From the IMG/VR virus record IMGVR_UViG_3300049846_001597, positions 1 through 64,000 of that record: a stretch of DNA of 64,000 nt; one strand, given 5' to 3'. Positions 754-17,583 of the stretch are shown one piece after another. The notes under the pieces were generated by a model. That model ran no database searches and was not told the origin of the DNA. It saw only the letters and a program-made list of their open reading frames with translations. A program made the position numbers and the translations under genes. Numbering within the stretch: the first letter of the stretch is position 1; each line of letters opens with the position of its first letter. This DNA comes from a virus.

Positions 754-781
754 TTGACTACTAACGCGCGCCGACTATTTT
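754..781 (+). promoter_or_regulatory. Promoter of the amidoligase operon
   Basis: TTGACT (754-759), a 16-bp spacer and TATTTT (776-781) lie about 30 bp before the GTG start at 813. The same 16-bp spacing recurs at the other promoters in this window. The spacer contains GACTACTAACGC, also found at 17615-17626. Confidence 0.55.
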
Positions 782-812
782 GGCTTCCGTAAGCAATACG
801 AAGGGAACGACC

Positions 813-2858
813 GTGCCGCCTACACACACCCCTAATGGAGTTCTGATTGGGTCGCCGCCGCTTTGGCGCCAACGCGGAATATACGACGCTGAACTTGGGC
901 CTGCGCCAAATGACGGCGCGGAGCTGGCGCTCCGCGCCTTGCGCAACGAACCCACTTATACGGGCGTCCGCGACAACATTACCTACATGGTGGAATGGAG
1001 CGGCACGCCGCAAGGCGAGGTTCCGCACCCGACGATTGCGCGTGGCAGCTTTCCAACCGACTTCTGGCAAGAGGAGCATTACAACTATCAGGATGGCTAC
1101 CCGCTCTCCGCCGACGCCCGCATGATTTTGGAAGTGTGGCTTGGGCTCTATCAGGAGCCAGCTGCGCCTATCGACTACCCCGGCAACATGACCGCAGATT
1201 TGGCGCGCCAAATTTTGGCGGCCCCGAACGGCGCCGAATACGAGCGGCTTCTGATGTTGTGGCGCGACCCGGACGATAATTTCCCCTACTTTGGTTCCAG
1301 CCGCAGGCTGGAACACTATGCGGCGCCGAACCGCCCGCGCGGGTGGGCGAAGGCGGCGTTGCTGGCGGCCTACGAGGCGCGCCCGCGCGACCCCGGCGCC
1401 ATGCCGCCAGACTTCCGCGAGCTGCTTGAATATTGGGCGAGCGCGCCGCAGCCTGCCGCGCCTGCCGCGCCTGCCGCTTGGGCGCCGCAACCGTGGGCTG
1501 ACTCCGCCGAGGAGCGATACTTCCGCGATCACATGAACGCCGTTCTCGGTCGCGAAGGCCGCGACGCGCGCGACAACTACGGTGAAAACCATGAGTCTTG
1601 GCCGACTTGGGCGCGTGAGGTGCTGATGGGGCCGGATGAAGACTACGACGAGGAAGACGCCTGGGTTGCTTTTGACGCGAGCCCCGCCGCTGAAGCGGCG
1701 CGCGCGGCCAGCAACGGGTGGCCGATCTATTACACCCGCCGCCGCAACGCCATCCGTGTTCTCGTAATGGGCCGCGAGCCGCTGGCTTTGCCGTCTGTGG
1801 CGCGCCGGGTCGCGCCGGAGGTGGATGTCAGGAAGCCGCTGAAGCGGGTCAATGTCGAGCGCATCAAGGCGCGGCTGCCGGGCGTCAATGGTGCAACCGC
1901 TGGCTGCTCGTGCAACGTTTGCGCTAATCTGCGCAAAGCCGTTGATGGCAAAGACCCGCTGACGGCGCGCGACGCCAATCAAGTCGCTGCCGCTAAAGAG
2001 TACGCCGAAAAGGGGCGCACGTTTGGTGTCGAGATTGAGGGCTTCTTGCCGAAGGCCGAAGCGGCTGAAGCGGGCAGCCTCAACATGCACCAATATCTCA
2101 ATCTGAAGCTGGCTGAGGCGGGGTTGAAAGCGCGCGGCGCAGGCGGCGGCGCGGCCTGGGGCGTCAAGAACGATTCATCCTTGCGCGACGGCCCGCGCGG
2201 CGCGACTGCGATTGAGCTGGTGTCGCCGATCCTGCGGGGTGAAGATGGGCTTCAGCAAATCGCCAAGGCGGCGGCGGTGCTCAATGCGCTCGGCGGCTCC
2301 GTCAACAAGAGCGCTGGCCTCCACGTCCACGTGGGCGCGAAAGATTTGAACCTTGAGCAGCGTCGTAACTTGCTGTCGCAATTTGTGCGCTACGAGCGGT
2401 TCTTTGATCTGATCTTGCCTGCGTCACGCCGGTCAAACCGCTACGCCAATTCGCTGCGCGAGAAGGCCTCGGCCACCAAGAACAAGAGCTGGAAGGCGGC
2501 GGAGCACGCGATCCTCTCCATCCTGGCGGCAAAGACTGAGGATGAATTGCGCCGGGTCGCCGTCTGGGACGATCACCATGCGGCGCTTTCGGATGCGCGC
2601 GCTAAGCACGGCACGTTTGAGTTCCGCCAGCACTCTGGCTCGATGAACGGCGAGAAGATCATCAATTGGGTGCGCCTCGTGACCGCGTTTGTTGAGGCGG
2701 CCAAGGATAAGCCTGCGCTGCCCTTCTACTCGCGCAAGCTCTCGGATGAAGAGGAGATGGAGAAGTTTTTCGAGACGTTCTCCATCCCACGCGATCTGCG
2801 CGCTTACTACAGGAAGCGCCACGCGGCGCTCTACGCCAACCCGGAAGACGACAACTAG
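813..2858 (+). CDS. Amidoligase enzyme, large form with N-terminal extension
   Basis: The C-terminal 280 residues carry the marks of the Amidoligase_2 family (glutamine-synthetase-like fold, ATP-dependent peptide or amide bond formation): FGVEIEG near residue 404, HVHVG near 504 and EFRQHSGSMNG near 603. The first 390 residues are a proline/alanine-rich extension without a recognised domain, ending in a CSCNVC cysteine cluster that may bind zinc. Start GTG 813 is preferred over TTG 780 because AAGGGA precedes it at good spacing. It heads an operon with a second amidoligase and a GGCT-like gene. Substrate is unknown. Confidence 0.85.
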   Translation: MPPTHTPNGVLIGSPPLWRQRGIYDAELGPAPNDGAELALRALRNEPTYTGVRDNITYMVEWSGTPQGEVPHPTIARGSFPTDFWQEEHYNYQDGYPLSADARMILEVWLGLYQEPAAPIDYPGNMTADLARQILAAPNGAEYERLLMLWRDPDDNFPYFGSSRRLEHYAAPNRPRGWAKAALLAAYEARPRDPGAMPPDFRELLEYWASAPQPAAPAAPAAWAPQPWADSAEERYFRDHMNAVLGREGRDARDNYGENHESWPTWAREVLMGPDEDYDEEDAWVAFDASPAAEAARAASNGWPIYYTRRRNAIRVLVMGREPLALPSVARRVAPEVDVRKPLKRVNVERIKARLPGVNGATAGCSCNVCANLRKAVDGKDPLTARDANQVAAAKEYAEKGRTFGVEIEGFLPKAEAAEAGSLNMHQYLNLKLAEAGLKARGAGGGAAWGVKNDSSLRDGPRGATAIELVSPILRGEDGLQQIAKAAAVLNALGGSVNKSAGLHVHVGAKDLNLEQRRNLLSQFVRYERFFDLILPASRRSNRYANSLREKASATKNKSWKAAEHAILSILAAKTEDELRRVAVWDDHHAALSDARAKHGTFEFRQHSGSMNGEKIINWVRLVTAFVEAAKDKPALPFYSRKLSDEEEMEKFFETFSIPRDLRAYYRKRHAALYANPEDDN

Positions 2859-2884
2859 AAAGTCAAAACGGAGACTGTCCTACT

Positions 2885-3853
2885 ATGAAACTGCACAAAG
2901 ACTTGCTGCCTCAGCGCGGCTTCGGCGTCGAGATCGAGCACCACCAGCCACCCGGAACCCCCACGAATTTTATCGTGGATGCGCTCGCAGCCGTGGGCCT
3001 CGATGTCGATTACGGGCGCTCCAGCACCACCCAATGGCGCGTCAATCGCGAAGACCCCGATGTCGAGGTGAAGTCGCCCATCCTGCGCGGCGAGAAGGGC
3101 ATCGCTGAACTCCAGCGGGCGATGAATGCGCTTGTTGGCATCGGCGGCTACGTTAGCGCAGGCGCAGGCATGCACGTCCATTTCAGCCGCGACGATCTTA
3201 CGCCCGCGCAGTTGGCCAATTGGGCTTGGGGCTACATCCGCCACGAGCCGCAGATCGATCAGATCGTCTCAAAGATGCGGTCTGAGGAGGGGCGCATGTA
3301 TAATCGCTCCAATCTTACAAGCATCGAACGCCTGATGAGCAGGCCGACGCTCCAATGTACCTGCGGGTCTTGCGCGAGAGATTACCGCGAGCGCCTTGCG
3401 CGGTGGCAGGCCGCCACCGATGCTGGCGCGCTACCGACGCCAGCGCAATGGGTGCGTGGCGACACGCGCTCCCCAGCATCGGTGGCTGCGTGCATTGGCG
3501 ACATCAATCAAAAGGGGCCGAAGTTTTCGATCCGCGCGTTCCCGACTGTTGAAATCCGCCAACACCAAGGCACGCTCAATGGCGCACGCGCCGGTCACTG
3601 GATCAGGCTGATGCTGGCATTGGCCGAGGTCGCAAAGGATGACGGCGAGAGCGTCGAAATTGTGCGTGGGACGGATGAGAAGACGTTCAAGCGCTTCTTG
3701 GTCTACACGCGCGCGCCGCTGACGACGCAGAATTATTGGTTGGTGCAACGCCGCCTGCTGCGCAACGCAAACATTCCATTGACTGGACTTGAGCTAACCC
3801 GTTCATGCCCTGAGTGCGCGGTGAAGGCGCCGATGCTGGCGGAGGTCGCCTGA
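2885..3853 (+). CDS. Amidoligase enzyme, short form
   Basis: A 322-residue paralogue of the preceding gene. FGVEIEH lies at residues 14-20, MHVHF near 97 and VEIRQHQGTLNG near 222, the conserved Amidoligase_2 acid, histidine and Arg/Gln positions. A CTCGSC cluster near 158 mirrors the cysteine motif of the large paralogue but sits inside the core, and CPEC lies near the C-terminus. The start follows GGAGACTGTCCT, a leader also used at 46922. Its TGA overlaps the next ATG, so the ligase and the cyclotransferase-like protein are probably made together. Substrate unknown. Confidence 0.88.
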   Translation: MKLHKDLLPQRGFGVEIEHHQPPGTPTNFIVDALAAVGLDVDYGRSSTTQWRVNREDPDVEVKSPILRGEKGIAELQRAMNALVGIGGYVSAGAGMHVHFSRDDLTPAQLANWAWGYIRHEPQIDQIVSKMRSEEGRMYNRSNLTSIERLMSRPTLQCTCGSCARDYRERLARWQAATDAGALPTPAQWVRGDTRSPASVAACIGDINQKGPKFSIRAFPTVEIRQHQGTLNGARAGHWIRLMLALAEVAKDDGESVEIVRGTDEKTFKRFLVYTRAPLTTQNYWLVQRRLLRNANIPLTGLELTRSCPECAVKAPMLAEVA

Positions 3854-4836
3854 TGAGCTACCCCTATCAATCCATCGACTACAGCAAGATGCGTTGGGAC
3901 GTTCGCTTGCAAAAATTCGTGCCGAAGACGCTGCCGTCTGACGACAGCGGCATCGGCAAATCCAAAGAGCGACGCAACAAGAGCCAAAGGCAGCGTGAGA
4001 TGCGCAACAAGTTCAAGAACGCCTTCGGCAAGACCCCCTACCAAGCCTGGGACAGCCAGACCCGCTCCTGGCGCTGGTTTGGCGGCACCTGGGATAAGGC
4101 GCGCAAGCGTTGGCGTGAAGCACGTAAGAATTGGGAGGCGAGTGCGCCGCTCTATTTTGCCTACGGCTCCAATCTGAACATCAAGCAAATGGAAAAGCGC
4201 GCGCCAGAGGCGACGCTGTTTGCCTCGATGCGGATGCAGGATTGGAAGCTCGTCTTCCGTGGCGTGGCCGACATCGAGGCGGCTCCCGGCGACTACGTTG
4301 AAGGCGGCCTCTGGCGTATCACGGGCGCCGATGAGCTGGCGCTTGACCGTTACGAGGGGGTCAATAGCGGCATGTACATCAAAGATTACTTTACCGTGGG
4401 CTACACCAACAAAGCCGGTGAGCAGGTAGAGGAGCGGTGCTTGGTCTATTTAATGAACCGAGATCGTGGACAGAACGCGCCGTGGAAGTCATATTTCGAC
4501 TCAATTGTTGAAGGCTACGAGGACTTCGGTCTTGACCCAACCAAACTTCACGAGGCGCGGGCGGCGGCTGAAGCCATCGAGGCGGTTGCGAAAGCTGAGC
4601 GAGAAGCCAAGTACCGCGCCGCCTACCGCGCCAACCCGAAGCCAAAGACCGGGCGCGGCTTCTACGACGACCATCAGGACTACTACCCCAAGAGCTACTA
4701 CAACCACCAAGGCAACTACTATGACGGGCCGAGCTACGACCAAGACGAAGACGAAGCGCCCGGCAAGCGGGAGCCGAACAAAGTCGAGTTCGATGAGTGG
4801 GTCCGCGCGTTCTACGGGCTCGATGGGGCCGACTAA
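3853..4836 (+). CDS. Gamma-glutamylcyclotransferase-like (AIG2/GGACT) protein
   Basis: Residues 100-225 form an AIG2/gamma-glutamylcyclotransferase fold: FAYGSNL (102-108) is the family's substrate loop and LDRYEG near residue 170 supplies the usual catalytic glutamate position. Family members release 5-oxoproline from gamma-glutamyl amines or peptides. A basic N-terminal 95 residues with KERRNKSQRQRE and a Tyr/Asp-rich low-complexity tail (YYPKSYYNHQGNYY) flank the domain. ATG overlaps the upstream stop (TGATGA). Next to two amide ligases, a role in trimming or reversing a gamma-glutamyl-type modification is a reasonable inference. Confidence 0.85.
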   Translation: MSYPYQSIDYSKMRWDVRLQKFVPKTLPSDDSGIGKSKERRNKSQRQREMRNKFKNAFGKTPYQAWDSQTRSWRWFGGTWDKARKRWREARKNWEASAPLYFAYGSNLNIKQMEKRAPEATLFASMRMQDWKLVFRGVADIEAAPGDYVEGGLWRITGADELALDRYEGVNSGMYIKDYFTVGYTNKAGEQVEERCLVYLMNRDRGQNAPWKSYFDSIVEGYEDFGLDPTKLHEARAAAEAIEAVAKAEREAKYRAAYRANPKPKTGRGFYDDHQDYYPKSYYNHQGNYYDGPSYDQDEDEAPGKREPNKVEFDEWVRAFYGLDGAD

Positions 4837-5050
4837 AGCGCAGCAGCGTTGGCGGGACAGTTTCCCCGTCAACGCTGCGATCTTTGACGTAGCGGCTGAA
4901 ATGACGCCGGAGGAGATCGCAGCCGCGCTCCGGGTTAGCGTGCAAACGGTTTACTCCTGGCGGCGCACGAAGGCGGTGCGTGCGCCGAAGTCGGCTTTGG
5001 CGCTGCTCTGCCACGAGATCGGCGCGCCAAGTCACCCACTATCGCGCTAG
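4823..5050 (+). CDS. Small helix-turn-helix protein
   Basis: A 75-residue protein starting at ATG 4823, inside the last 14 bases of the cyclotransferase-like gene in another frame. MTPEEIAAALRVSVQTVYSW (residues 31-50) is a clear helix-turn-helix of the kind found in small phage regulators. As the last gene of the amidoligase operon it may feed back on this cassette, but the sequence does not show a target. It converges with the reverse gene ending at 5047. Confidence 0.72.
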   Translation: MGPTKAQQRWRDSFPVNAAIFDVAAEMTPEEIAAALRVSVQTVYSWRRTKAVRAPKSALALLCHEIGAPSHPLSR

Positions 5051-5589
5051 GTTTCGGCGGCTACTTTAAACTCATCTTCGTTTACGCCAAACGTCCAGGC
5101 TCTGGCCTGACGCACTGACCGCATCGACGGCGGCACGCAAAGCACGTGCTTGGTTTTCTTACTCGGACACGTCACGACCAGCACCGCCGCTGGGAACTCC
5201 GGGTGCGTAAAAACCAGCGAGTCAAACCTATAGAGCGCGCCTTCGCGCGTCTTATCGATCACCCACACGCGATAGTAGGGGCGATGATTCCGTACGCCGT
5301 AGTCGTGCATCCGAGGTGTTGAGAGTAAGCGATCCGCCATCTGATAGAGACGCCAAGCCCGTATATCGAGCGCGGTCGGTTGCCGTCCCCCACGTCGCGC
5401 CACGTGCAGGGAGGTCTTCGCACCTCGCTTTGTCATGGCGATCACCTCAGCCTCAAGCGTTTCTCGCAAATCGTTTATCTCTGCGGCCTTGAGTCCGCGA
5501 CACGGGCGTGGGCGGTCGCGCCACGCATCCAGATGCGCGTTCAGACTTCTGAACGGCGCATCCAGCCAGCGCGCCAGAAACCAACTCAT
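5047..5589 (-). CDS. Hypothetical protein, paralogue of its upstream neighbour
   Basis: 180 residues, unrecognised. The last 45 residues, including KHVLCVPPSM and RQARAWTFGVNEDEF, match the C-terminus of the next gene (KPHVLFVPVTM and KQARAWTFGLAPEDF), so the two share a C-terminal module on different N-termini. The start ATG at 5589 overlaps the TGA of the upstream gene (ATGA). The stop overlaps the convergent HTH gene by four bases. Confidence 0.75.
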   Translation of the reverse strand: MSWFLARWLDAPFRSLNAHLDAWRDRPRPCRGLKAAEINDLRETLEAEVIAMTKRGAKTSLHVARRGGRQPTALDIRAWRLYQMADRLLSTPRMHDYGVRNHRPYYRVWVIDKTREGALYRFDSLVFTHPEFPAAVLVVTCPSKKTKHVLCVPPSMRSVRQARAWTFGVNEDEFKVAAET

Positions 5590-6281
5590 GTTTCGATCTC
5601 CAGGGCTTCAAAATCTTCCGGCGCGAGGCCGAACGTCCAGGCGCGCGCTTGCTTGGCGGTCTGCATCGTGACCGGCACGAAGAGGACATGGGGTTTGTTC
5701 GTGGAAGGGCAGGCGACGAGAAGCGCGCGCGCCGGGGCGTCTCTAATCTCAAACAGCCGCCCATGATCGTCTTGGCCCCGCAGGGCAACCGCACCCATCC
5801 CGAAGTCACCGCGCGCCATACGCAGGCTGCGCCGCGTTAGCTCGTAGCGGCGCTCCAGGGCGGTTTCTTCTCTTATCGGTTCATAGACCGCCATGCCGTA
5901 TCGGCGTTGCTCTATGGCGAGGCCAATCTTGGTGTAGGATAGGCCGAGGTCGCCGTGCGGGGATTCAATCAGCTCGACGCGCCCGCTCATGTCCTTCAAT
6001 TCGCTAATGAGGGCGTCTACGAGGTCTGGGAAGACTGCAGTGCTGATGTGCGCCGTGGCGCGGAGGATGTCAGTCGCGCGGGCAAAACGGTAAGAGTCGT
6101 AGCCGTATAGTGTTGACGTGCGCACGTTGATGGAGGCCCAGCGGCGCTCGGCGTTGCGTATCAGCTCGCGCCTTGCTGCTTGACGTTGACGTTCGGCTTC
6201 TTGCTCCAGAAGCTGGCGCTCGCGGTAGTTGCGCATCCAGATGTCGCTCCAATCAACGTGGCCGCCGTAATCGTCATCCAT
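5586..6281 (-). CDS. Hypothetical protein with the same C-terminal module
   Basis: 231 residues beginning MDDDYGGHVDW, with an Arg/Glu-rich helix at residues 20-50 and the shared C-terminal module ARAWTFGLAPEDF. CGGAG precedes the ATG by about nine bases. A rho-independent terminator (6295-6330) separates it from the gene upstream, so it probably has some independent transcription. No known domain was recognised. Confidence 0.78.
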   Translation of the reverse strand: MDDDYGGHVDWSDIWMRNYRERQLLEQEAERQRQAARRELIRNAERRWASINVRTSTLYGYDSYRFARATDILRATAHISTAVFPDLVDALISELKDMSGRVELIESPHGDLGLSYTKIGLAIEQRRYGMAVYEPIREETALERRYELTRRSLRMARGDFGMGAVALRGQDDHGRLFEIRDAPARALLVACPSTNKPHVLFVPVTMQTAKQARAWTFGLAPEDFEALEIET

Positions 6282-10114: not shown

Positions 10115-10344
10115 GGCGACTTCTCTCCCTGTGTCCTTGGCTGCAGAAAAGCTGCGCAGTCAGAGCCGTGCGTTCCGTGCGTGAGCACGCATGGGTTCGA
10201 CGGCACAGGCAATTGCGTCGGGCTCCACGGCGTCATCCAGAATGGGTTCTCGGCAGGCTTCGCAACGCAGCGCCCGTAGCGCGGCTCTCTGCGATGCCAC
10301 GGCAGGCGAGGTTGGCGCGTCCACTGAGCGCAATCCTTACACAT
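10111..10344 (-). CDS. Small cysteine-rich hypothetical protein
   Basis: 77 residues from ATG 10344: MCKDCAQWTRQP, then YGRCVAKP, FWMTPW and SDCAAFLQP. The spacing C..C-W-G-C-W-C..F recalls small phage proteins seen in replication regions and suggests a compact metal-bound fold. The chosen ATG overlaps the upstream stop by eight bases; ATG 10359 is an alternative. Confidence 0.6.
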   Translation of the reverse strand: MCKDCAQWTRQPRLPWHRREPRYGRCVAKPAENPFWMTPWSPTQLPVPSNPCVLTHGTHGSDCAAFLQPRTQGEKSP

Positions 10345-10627
10345 CGCTTCCGCTTCCATCGTCAGCCTTGAGAGAGAACTTTTGGCGCAGGTTTTTGATA
10401 CGCCGGTTGCGCTTGATGATCGCTAAGTTCGCTAAGCGTAGCTGCTCGCGAAGGGTCGCCATTTCGGCATGGTGAGCATACGAAACGCGAACCTGTAGCT
10501 TGAAGTTGAAGTCGAGAAGTTCAAGTTTGCGCGCGGCCTCCTCATGGAGAGGGGATGGGTCAGCGCGGAGGTCTTTGACGATCCCTTCCGTACTGCGCTC
10601 TGACATGCATCCGTCAGCCATCGTCAT
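10337..10627 (-). CDS. Small coiled-coil protein
   Basis: 96 residues. From about residue 30 onward it is heptad-like (EAARKLELLDFNFKLQ ... LREQLRLANLAIIKRNRRI), predicting a coiled coil. Two ATGs lie at the start; GGAGAGGGTGA precedes the first, which overlaps the upstream TGA. Function unknown. Confidence 0.65.
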   Translation of the reverse strand: MTMADGCMSERSTEGIVKDLRADPSPLHEEAARKLELLDFNFKLQVRVSYAHHAEMATLREQLRLANLAIIKRNRRIKNLRQKFSLKADDGSGSDV

Positions 10628-10830
10628 TCACCCTCTCCGGGTGCAGCCTCGATAGAGACGTTGCCTGCGCCGCTGAACTTGTGCCGATAGTCAGCAAGAG
10701 CGCCGCCGCAACGTGGGCAATAGGCGGCTGTTGGCTCCACAAAAACCCACACGCTGCTCTTTGAGGATCGGCTAGATTCCTCTACCTGAAGGCATGAGTA
10801 GCGCCGCATAACTTCGGGCCAGTACATCAT
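10624..10830 (-). CDS. Small zinc-knuckle protein
   Basis: 68 residues from ATG 10830 (MMYWPEVMRRYSCLQV), containing AYCPRCGGALADY, a single CxxC zinc knuckle. GGAGAAGA precedes the ATG, and ATGA overlaps link it to both neighbours. Function unknown. Confidence 0.62.
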   Translation of the reverse strand: MMYWPEVMRRYSCLQVEESSRSSKSSVWVFVEPTAAYCPRCGGALADYRHKFSGAGNVSIEAAPGEGE

Positions 10831-11090
10831 TCTTCTCCGGGCGTTACTTCTGGAGAGCCATTCTCTTTCGCGAACGGATGGTGCTTGATGATGTCGTGCA
10901 CAGCATCTGCGCCGTGCGCTTTCGCTCGCTCCGGCCATGTGTGGCGCAGCACGAAATCTACGAAGGCTCTAGCGTCGTCACGCGCCGCTCGCTGCGTCAT
11001 GGCCAGAACTTCGGTTGTGATGGGGCCGATGCCGACCTCATTGCGAAGGCCGGATTTGATCAGCGCCTCGACACGATCTCTCAAAGCCAT
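10827..11090 (-). CDS. Hypothetical protein sharing a module with 12254-13120
   Basis: 87 residues. The segment AFVDFVLRHTWPERAKAHGA through HHPFA recurs with about 70% identity at the end of the gene at 12254-13120, showing duplication and fusion of a small domain. GGAGACTGAAC precedes the ATG. No domain name is known to me. Confidence 0.7.
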   Translation of the reverse strand: MALRDRVEALIKSGLRNEVGIGPITTEVLAMTQRAARDDARAFVDFVLRHTWPERAKAHGADAVHDIIKHHPFAKENGSPEVTPGEE

Positions 11091-11092
11091 GT

Positions 11093-11269
11093 TCAGTCTC
11101 CGTGCGTTACGTTATCCGGGCCGTGTACGGCTGCGATCAGCGCCTTGCGCGCCGTCAGGCATCTTTCCCGATCCTCATAAGTTTCGCGATCAATCGCGCT
11201 CAACGACATGAAGTTCTCGCGTGCCTCCAAGTACGCATCCAGCGCATCCACGAAATTGTCCGCATCCAT
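11093..11269 (-). CDS. Small hypothetical protein (58 aa)
   Basis: ATG 11269 opens a 58-residue frame (MDADNFVDALDAYLEARENF...HGD) ending at TGA 11093, three bases before the ATG of the next gene. It fills an otherwise empty slot in the operon, and GGAGCGGAAGTGA precedes its ATG. It is acidic and helical; function unknown. Confidence 0.65.
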   Translation of the reverse strand: MDADNFVDALDAYLEARENFMSLSAIDRETYEDRERCLTARKALIAAVHGPDNVTHGD

Positions 11270-16203: not shown

Positions 16204-17583
16204 TTACTTGTCTCCCTTATTCCGGCCTCGCGAGCGGCGCTTCGACCACCCGCGATACTTCGCCTCGCTTGCGAGGCCCATACTTTCCCCGGCGCTGCGC
16301 ATCCGCTGAAGCTCCTGCTCCACAAGATGTTCGGATGCGCCGGGTATTTTCGCGGCGGCCTCCTTGGCCGAGAAGCCTAATGTAGTACATAACACCACGG
16401 CTTCAAGAGATTTCTGCGCTTTCTCGCTCAGCGGCCTCTTGCCTCTCCGTCCGTCACCCTTTGTTGGCACGACTTTCACCTCACCTTTGTAGGCATCGAT
16501 GGCGGCGCGCTGCTCGGGTGTCATGCGACTGCGGGCGGCCTCTTCTTTCGTGTCGGCCACCGCCTCCATCTGCTCAGTCGTCATCTCTTCAATGCGCGGC
16601 AACTCGCCACTGCGGTTCATCTCCGCCAGTCGCTCTTGCGTGACAGGCTTCGTAAAGCGAGCGGCCTTCAGCAACGCCGCGAACCGGCGTGCGGCCTCTT
16701 CCGGTGGAAAGTAGTCGTCTGGATTGGCGACTTGATCTTTGGCGATTTCCGCATCGGCATCGATCTTGTCGATTTTCTTCACTTGCTCGCGCGTCAGCGC
16801 GGCAGCCTTCTTTGGGCGGCCAGCCTTCTTTTTGTTCGGTCGCATCTCATCCCAATAGAACGTGTCTCGTTTGCGCGCAGGCGGCGCAGGCGGCGCAGGC
16901 GGCGCGGAAAACGAGACTTGTTGACCTCGATAGGTGATGTCGCGCTGACACGCCTTGCAGCGGAAAGTTGGCCTCCGCTTGGCGATGCTTTCAGCGTGCA
17001 GCGTCCAAAACTCTTCGCCGCCGCACTTGCACTTAAGCCCAACAACACGCGCCTCACGCTTCGCAGCGGCAGCCGCCGCCAAGCGCTCTTTGTTTGCCTC
17101 CAAATGCGCGGCTTTTTCTCGGCGAACAGTGCGCAGCTCCGCCGCGCCGCGCTCAAGCAGAAGTTCAAGCATCGGCTCATTCCAGATCGTGCCGCGCTTT
17201 ATCGCGCTCGGGATCGAATGCCACCAGCGCGCCGCCACGCGCGCTGTGATGCCTCCTGCAAGCGCCAGCTTGCCTAGAGACGGCTGCGGCCCCAGGCAAG
17301 CTTGGCACATACGGATGATCTGGCTCCACGTCAGATTAGTGGCGCCCTGAAAGATGGTTCCCATCTTGGTGGAGAAGCTGGCGCGGCAATTACGATCCGC
17401 GCAGCGATAGACAGCAGCCCACTCAGACGTGGGGCGCGAAATGCGGTAGGCGTTGTTGACCCCGCCACACTTCACACAAACCGGCCCAGCGGGCCACAGC
17501 AGCCGCTCAACCGCCGCTACAGCTTCGGAATCGGTCGCCGCGACAATGGCGGCTAATTGAGCGACGGTGACGGCGGGGCGCAT
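16204..17583 (-). CDS. DNA-binding protein with transposase-like zinc ribbon
   Basis: 459 residues. The N-terminus (PVCVKCGGVNNAYRI ... YRCADRNCRASFSTKMGTIF) resembles the zinc-ribbon domain of IS1595-type transposases, including the phrase after the second Cys pair. A second zinc ribbon (LKCKCGGEEFW ... FRCKACQRDI) lies near residue 190. The rest is lysine-rich with a proline repeat (APPAPPAPPA) and an AT-hook-like RPNKKKAGRPKK. No DDE catalytic domain is visible, so a domesticated DNA-binding protein is more likely than a transposase. Confidence 0.7.
   Translation of the reverse strand: MRPAVTVAQLAAIVAATDSEAVAAVERLLWPAGPVCVKCGGVNNAYRISRPTSEWAAVYRCADRNCRASFSTKMGTIFQGATNLTWSQIIRMCQACLGPQPSLGKLALAGGITARVAARWWHSIPSAIKRGTIWNEPMLELLLERGAAELRTVRREKAAHLEANKERLAAAAAAKREARVVGLKCKCGGEEFWTLHAESIAKRRPTFRCKACQRDITYRGQQVSFSAPPAPPAPPARKRDTFYWDEMRPNKKKAGRPKKAAALTREQVKKIDKIDADAEIAKDQVANPDDYFPPEEAARRFAALLKAARFTKPVTQERLAEMNRSGELPRIEEMTTEQMEAVADTKEEAARSRMTPEQRAAIDAYKGEVKVVPTKGDGRRGKRPLSEKAQKSLEAVVLCTTLGFSAKEAAAKIPGASEHLVEQELQRMRSAGESMGLASEAKYRGWSKRRSRGRNKGDK

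What the first reader, a model, noticed from the sequence alone, without database searches (positions are those of the whole stretch)
754..5050. Phage cassette of two amidoligases and a gamma-glutamylcyclotransferase-like protein
Two paralogous Amidoligase_2 proteins, each with a CxCxxC cluster, are coupled by stop/start overlap to a GGCT-like protein and a small HTH gene under one promoter. Amidoligase/GGCT associations have been proposed in comparative genomics for peptide or metabolite tagging. Here it would be a phage-encoded modify-and-trim pair, perhaps acting on a phage or host protein or on glutathione-like compounds. The Tyr/Asp-rich tail of the GGCT-like protein and the long extension of the first ligase are unusual.
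Basis: partly seen in the sequence, partly recalled or inferred. Interest (0 to 1): 0.75.

Follow-up and report, generated by a model that had tools for sequence, protein, structure and literature searches.

The report
Phage twin amidoligase and glutamyl-cyclotransferase cassette
This uncultured phage carries a variant of a widespread and already described phage gene pair, an enzyme predicted to make glutamyl-type amide bonds and one predicted to cut them, with a rare second copy of the bond-making enzyme; what it modifies is unknown for this phage and, as far as I found, has not been shown for any relative.

Summary
On the + strand lie four genes: amidoligase AL1 (780 or 813-2858), amidoligase AL2 (2885-3853), a GGCT (3853-4836) and a small HTH (4823-5050). 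Both ALs exceed the Pfam Amidoligase_2 cut-off, keep the family-invariant E, H and R residues, and their models match YbdK, glutamine synthetase and GshA. The GGCT aligns with human GGCT and keeps the catalytic Glu (E168). The pairing itself is known: phage AL+GGCT modules were proposed in 2009 (Iyer et al., as cited by later papers), and in my scans 38 of 41 GGCT loci have an AL within 1.5 kb on the same strand. Uncommon here: two catalytically complete ALs side by side (50 of 50 other AL-bearing virus records have one; one more tandem pair, L263, turned up later), Cys clusters in both, a 400-residue extension on AL1, and strong divergence of AL2. Corrections: AL1/AL2 are separated by 26 bp, not overlapped; the two CxCxxC clusters are not at homologous positions; the promoter match is at chance level. 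Most likely role: ATP-dependent gamma-glutamyl-type amide formation with GGCT turnover, target unproven. New variant of a known kind.

The parts
754..781 (+). sigma-70-like promoter match (TTGACT-16-TATTTT), unproven
   Evidence: 2 found against 1.2 expected in shuffles, so not more than chance
780..2858 (+). AL1, amidoligase 1 (692 aa from TTG 780; 681 aa from the more likely GTG 813), with a ~400-residue N-terminal extension without relatives
   Evidence: PF12224 E 3.3e-27 at residues 412-637; model matches 1tt4/YbdK/GS; extension has no Pfam hit and is only in the window
1905..1922 (+). CSCNVC cluster of AL1, about 35 residues before the amidoligase domain
2013..2690 (+). Amidoligase_2 domain of AL1
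2885..3853 (+). AL2, amidoligase 2 (322 aa), highly diverged
   Evidence: PF12224 E 6.4e-14; AlphaFold model pLDDT 74.5 matches YbdK, GmaS and glutamine synthetases; longest branch of the tree
3356..3373 (+). CTCGSC cluster of AL2, in an insertion inside the domain
3806..3817 (+). CPEC near the C-terminus of AL2
3853..4836 (+). GGCT (327 aa) with a basic/aromatic N-terminal extension (1-97) and an Asp/Tyr-rich tail
   Evidence: PF06094/PF13772, human GGCT E 1e-13; phrog_2520 4.5e-24
4354..4356 (+). codon of E168, aligned with catalytic Glu98 of human GGCT
   Evidence: conserved 155/155
4823..5050 (+). small HTH protein (75 aa), overlapping the end of the GGCT gene; same family follows GGCT in L098, L225, L270 and AL in L023, L199, L213
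   Evidence: PF13384 E 2.8e-7

Best explanation
It is an operon-like variant of the phage amidoligase-GGCT module. Shown: two GS/GCS-fold (by prediction) carboxylate-amine ligases of family Amidoligase_2 and a GGCT with its catalytic Glu are encoded in tandem with a small HTH protein. Inferred from the families: AL1 (and AL2, or the two together) use ATP to activate a carboxylate, probably the gamma-carboxyl of a glutamate, and join it to an amine of a cytosolic acceptor; the GGCT removes a gamma-glutamyl group as 5-oxoproline, so it trims, recycles or reverses the product; the HTH protein regulates the operon or the host. My guess for the acceptor is a peptide-like macromolecule (cell-wall precursor peptide or a host protein), docked by the AL1 extension and Cys clusters, rather than glutathione. 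AL2 is either a second ligase of altered specificity or a partner subunit of AL1.
For: Family hits; ten invariant residues G, ExE, E, P, G, HxH, E, R kept by both ALs among 74 proteins and in the 212-sequence alignment; the significant fold matches are all gamma-glutamyl/carboxylate-amine ligases; GGCT similarity to human GGCT with E168; same-strand linkage within 1.5 kb in 38/41 GGCT-anchored and 32/55 AL-anchored loci; AL2, GGCT and HTH all have close relatives in L098 and in L023/L199.
Against: No activity, substrate or expression data here, and none found in the papers I read. The glutamine amidotransferase and ATP-grasp partners of several known modules are not detected in this record, though it is linear and may be incomplete. 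AL2 departs from 9 near-invariant positions, tied for the most of any relative, and may be inactive. Both ALs appear to lack the RYxKxN motif whose Asn is held by about 93% of relatives, with alignment uncertainty in AL2. Foldseek TM-scores are modest (0.2-0.45).
Confidence: 0.55

Rival explanations
1. Peptidoglycan-modification and superinfection-exclusion module: the ligases add unusual peptide links to cell-wall precursors and the GGCT trims them, blocking later phages.
For: This is the published proposal for related phage modules (PMC5498523, PMC11945000, PMC11253131, PMC11318856). L263 pairs two ALs with an R2K/RimK-like ATP-grasp.
Against: Predicted only; the papers I read report no chemical evidence. 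No ATP-grasp or GATase found in this record; nothing in the sequence points to the envelope.
Confidence: 0.3
2. Protein or peptide tagging: the ALs attach an amino acid to a phage or host protein; the extension, Cys clusters and HTH protein help choose the target.
For: Cys clusters or long extensions sit beside or in the AL domain in the window, L237, L260, L263, L268; a zinc-ribbon-like small protein follows GGCT in gut phages.
Against: Most ALs have no such additions; no target known.
Confidence: 0.25
3. Small-metabolite chemistry: the ALs make gamma-glutamyl amines or peptides and the GGCT recycles glutamate and nitrogen, an auxiliary metabolic role.
For: Nearest folds are YbdK, gamma-glutamylmethylamide synthetase and glutamine synthetase; human-type GGCT acts on gamma-glutamyl amino acids (general knowledge); proposed for Phage-ZRK32 (PMC10945688).
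Against: Long extensions and the HTH partner are not needed for small substrates; no growth or metabolite data for this phage.
Confidence: 0.25
4. AL2 is a decaying or non-catalytic duplicate that only supports AL1.
For: Branch length 2.46 against a median of 0.48; 9 of 29 near-invariant positions changed, including D134E, loss of S136 and R374S (alignment columns).
Against: The ORF is intact, coupled to GGCT, and keeps E16, E18, E61, H97, H99, E223, R225.
Confidence: 0.3

Closest known systems
Phage amidoligase + GGCT module (Iyer et al. 2009 as cited by later papers; Arthrobacter cluster AL phages, Waltz; Pseudoalteromonas PSA-HP1; LUZ24-like phages)
   Same: Amidoligase_2 and GGCT encoded on the same strand in a small cluster
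   Different: No glutamine amidotransferase or ATP-grasp detected here; two ALs; HTH at the end
Terrisporobacter phage TPDSL_ph1 and C. clostridioforme LM41 phi13 prophages, reported with two amidoligases and a GGCT (PMC11253131, PMC11318856)
   Same: Published gene order amidoligase, amidoligase, GGCT; in TPDSL_ph1 also a small ORF overlapping the GGCT end
   Different: In TPDSL_ph1 the first 'amidoligase' (242 aa) shows none of the catalytic motifs on reading, so only one looks complete; the small ORF is zinc-ribbon-like, not HTH. The LM41 proteins were not examined here
IMG/VR contig L098
   Same: AL, GGCT and overlapping homologous HTH in the same order
   Different: One AL, no Cys cluster, short GGCT
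IMG/VR contig L263
   Same: Two adjacent PF12224 genes; the small partner shares a reduced W/D.S region with AL2 and ends in CxxC; Cys-rich extension on the long partner
   Different: Opposite order, no GGCT found nearby, an ATP-grasp gene present
PafA/Dop pair (pupylation)
   Same: Paralogous ligase and reverse-acting enzyme of the GS/GCS-fold group (general knowledge; PMC7947786 abstract)
   Different: No Pup_ligase (PF03136) match in the record

Membership tests
Amidoligase_2 (PF12224) | Match above curated cut-off | tested here: met
   96.4 and 52.8 bits against a cut-off of 22
Amidoligase_2 (PF12224) | Family-invariant residues G, ExE, E, P, GxHxH, ExR | tested here: met
   Kept in both ALs
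Amidoligase_2 (PF12224) | GS/GCS-like fold | tested here: met
   Foldseek best hits YbdK, GmaS, GS, GshA; models of moderate quality
Amidoligase_2 (PF12224) | ATP-dependent carboxylate-amine ligation | not testable with these tools
   needs enzymology
Gamma-glutamylcyclotransferase | Family match and YGSN motif | tested here: met
   PF06094, PF13772, human GGCT E 1e-13; Y104-G105-S106-N107
Gamma-glutamylcyclotransferase | Catalytic glutamate | tested here: met
   E168, 155/155 relatives
Gamma-glutamylcyclotransferase | Release of 5-oxoproline | not testable with these tools
   needs enzymology
Phage AL+GGCT module | AL and GGCT adjacent on one strand | tested here: met
Phage AL+GGCT module (extended form) | Class II glutamine amidotransferase and ATP-grasp partner | tested here: not met
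   No PF13522, PF08443 or PF14243 match in the 72 kb record; other ATP-grasp families not searched genome-wide; record may be incomplete. Many minimal AL+GGCT loci also lack a detected GATase
PafA/Dop pupylation | Pup_ligase family match | tested here: not met

The most novel reading that the evidence does not exclude
The twin amidoligases form a dedicated pair, for example a two-subunit ligase or a writer and eraser as in PafA/Dop, in which the long Cys-bearing AL1 selects a macromolecular target and the diverged AL2 and the GGCT edit the product: a phage protein- or peptide-tagging system not described before.
Probability: 0.1. Interest if true: 0.75.

Novelty: new variant of a known kind. 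Interest (0 to 1): 0.36.

Why it matters
AL+GGCT pairs are common in uncultured phages, yet I found no demonstrated substrate. The scans give a strong linkage statistic, conserved residues for mutants, and a set of minimal loci (such as L098: one AL, GGCT, HTH) simpler to test than this one. If a target were found it would explain a module carried by many phage groups.

Tried and rejected
Single-protein scans of IMG/VR with P0001, P0002 and P0003 found nothing; alignment-based scans worked. A nine-sequence alignment was too diverse to scan with. Sequence search of solved structures found no relative for the ALs. The phylogeny cannot place AL2: long branch; AL1+AL2 as one clade is not rejected, but that does not show a local duplication; the AL2+L098+L023 test did not finish. 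PADLOC and NCBIfam gave no defence system; the MAD1 hits of the HTH are weak HTH cross-matches. The shared CxCxxC was considered as a common ancestral feature and rejected because the positions differ. A plain glutathione role was considered and ranked lower.

Full report
Setting. The window is bases 1-64000 of a 72,312-base IMG/VR virus record. It encodes a portal protein, a head-closure protein and a DnaB helicase, a capsid protein, and a replication initiator; the rest of the record holds a terminase, so it is a tailed phage. Its terminase is closest to Rhizobium phage RHph_N2 (59%), which hints at an alphaproteobacterial host (inference). The cassette lies near one end, on the + strand, while its neighbours on both sides are on the - strand. 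Third-codon G+C is like that of other phage genes.

Genes. AL1 780-2858, AL2 2885-3853, GGCT 3853-4836 and HTH 4823-5050. Pfam assigns Amidoligase_2 to both ALs, AIG2/GGACT to the third and HTH_23 to the fourth; PHROGs agrees for the enzymes. AL2 and GGCT, and GGCT and HTH, overlap; AL1 and AL2 are 26 bp apart. The promoter match is at chance level and its -10 covers the TTG start, so GTG 813 behind AAGGGA is the likelier start of AL1.

Are the enzymes intact? In an alignment of 74 amidoligases, ten columns are invariant and both window proteins keep them. In 212 domains AL2 differs at 9 of 29 near-invariant columns, tied for the most of any sequence; AL1 differs at only a few. Both seem to lack the RYxKxN motif, although a small shift could save the Asn in AL2. 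AlphaFold models match YbdK, gamma-glutamylmethylamide synthetase, glutamine synthetase and GshA/GshF. The first 400 residues of AL1 are modelled poorly and have no relatives found. The GGCT aligns with human GGCT over 150 residues, with E168 at the catalytic Glu98 (the role of Glu98 is general knowledge) and conserved in 155 of 155 relatives.

The module is common. Scans of IMG/VR gave hundreds of relatives. Among loci with at least 2 kb on both sides, 38 of 41 GGCT-anchored loci have an amidoligase domain within 1.5 kb and 32 of 55 AL-anchored loci have a GGCT, always on the same strand. Published phages show the same: Arthrobacter cluster AL (PMC5513430), PSA-HP1 (PMC5498523), LUZ24-like phages (PMC3890496, PMC11945000), Clostridium prophages (PMC11318856), Terrisporobacter TPDSL_ph1 (PMC11253131) and Phage-ZRK32 (PMC10945688). 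Several cite Iyer et al. 2009 for a predicted cell-wall role; that paper itself was not available.

What is unusual here. (1) Two catalytically complete ALs side by side: 50 of 50 other AL-bearing virus records have one. A later scan found one more pair, L263, with a short AL and a long Cys-rich AL, both above the Pfam cut-off. Published 'two amidoligase' cassettes exist, but in TPDSL_ph1 the first protein shows no catalytic motif on reading. (2) CxCxxC was found in both window ALs and in no other AL of the first set; later L237, L260, L263 and L268 showed Cys clusters too. (3) The HTH protein belongs to a small family that follows GGCT in L098, L225 and L270 and AL in L023, L199 and L213. AL2, GGCT and HTH all find close relatives in L098 and in L023/L199, which suggests that AL2-GGCT-HTH is an inherited unit to which AL1 was added; AL1 groups with L099 (96% SH-aLRT in one quick tree; not starred in a second). 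This is a suggestion, not a result.

Mechanism. The families imply ATP-dependent amide formation on a carboxylate, and removal of gamma-glutamyl groups as 5-oxoproline. That both lie in one operon-like cluster makes a make-and-trim or make-and-recycle pair likely. The acceptor is open: cell-wall peptide, protein or small molecule. I lean to a peptide-like macromolecule because of the extensions and Cys clusters. No glutamine amidotransferase, COOH-NH2_lig, RimK or R2K_3 ATP-grasp gene was detected in the record, so this is a reduced form of the larger published modules, with the caution that the record may be incomplete.

Verdict. Real, coherent and enzymatically plausible, but a variant of a known and widespread phage module; the twin amidoligase is the part worth following.

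Noticed in passing
window 5047-5589 and 5586-6281 (- strand): Two neighbouring genes whose C-termini both resemble DUF6745 weakly; convergent with the cassette.
   Followed up: no
window 16204-17583 (- strand): 459-aa protein with an IS1595-type transposase zinc ribbon near its N-terminus, inside a phage genome.
   Followed up: no
L006:5728-5961, L092:8806, L094:8786 and relatives, 48 loci in all: A conserved ~80-aa protein without a Pfam family directly follows the amidoligase in 47 loci (often before GGCT); it is absent from the window.
   Followed up: partly
L008:5536, L009:5449, L011:4443: Zinc-ribbon-like small protein overlapping the end of GGCT in gut phages, in the position of the HTH here.
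   Followed up: partly
L263:5977-8712 and 10306-11130: Tandem amidoligases, the long one with many CxxC pairs, near an R2K/RimK-like ATP-grasp gene.
   Followed up: partly
L237:5110-6885: Amidoligase fused to a YdcK-type beta-solenoid with a CxxC...CxxC element just before the domain.
   Followed up: no
L099:7935-10529: Amidoligase with a ~580-residue C-terminal extension, the nearest relative of AL1 in the tree.
   Followed up: partly
L009:2866-3594: Protein annotated 'amidoligase' in Terrisporobacter phage TPDSL_ph1 that shows none of the catalytic motifs on reading.
   Followed up: partly
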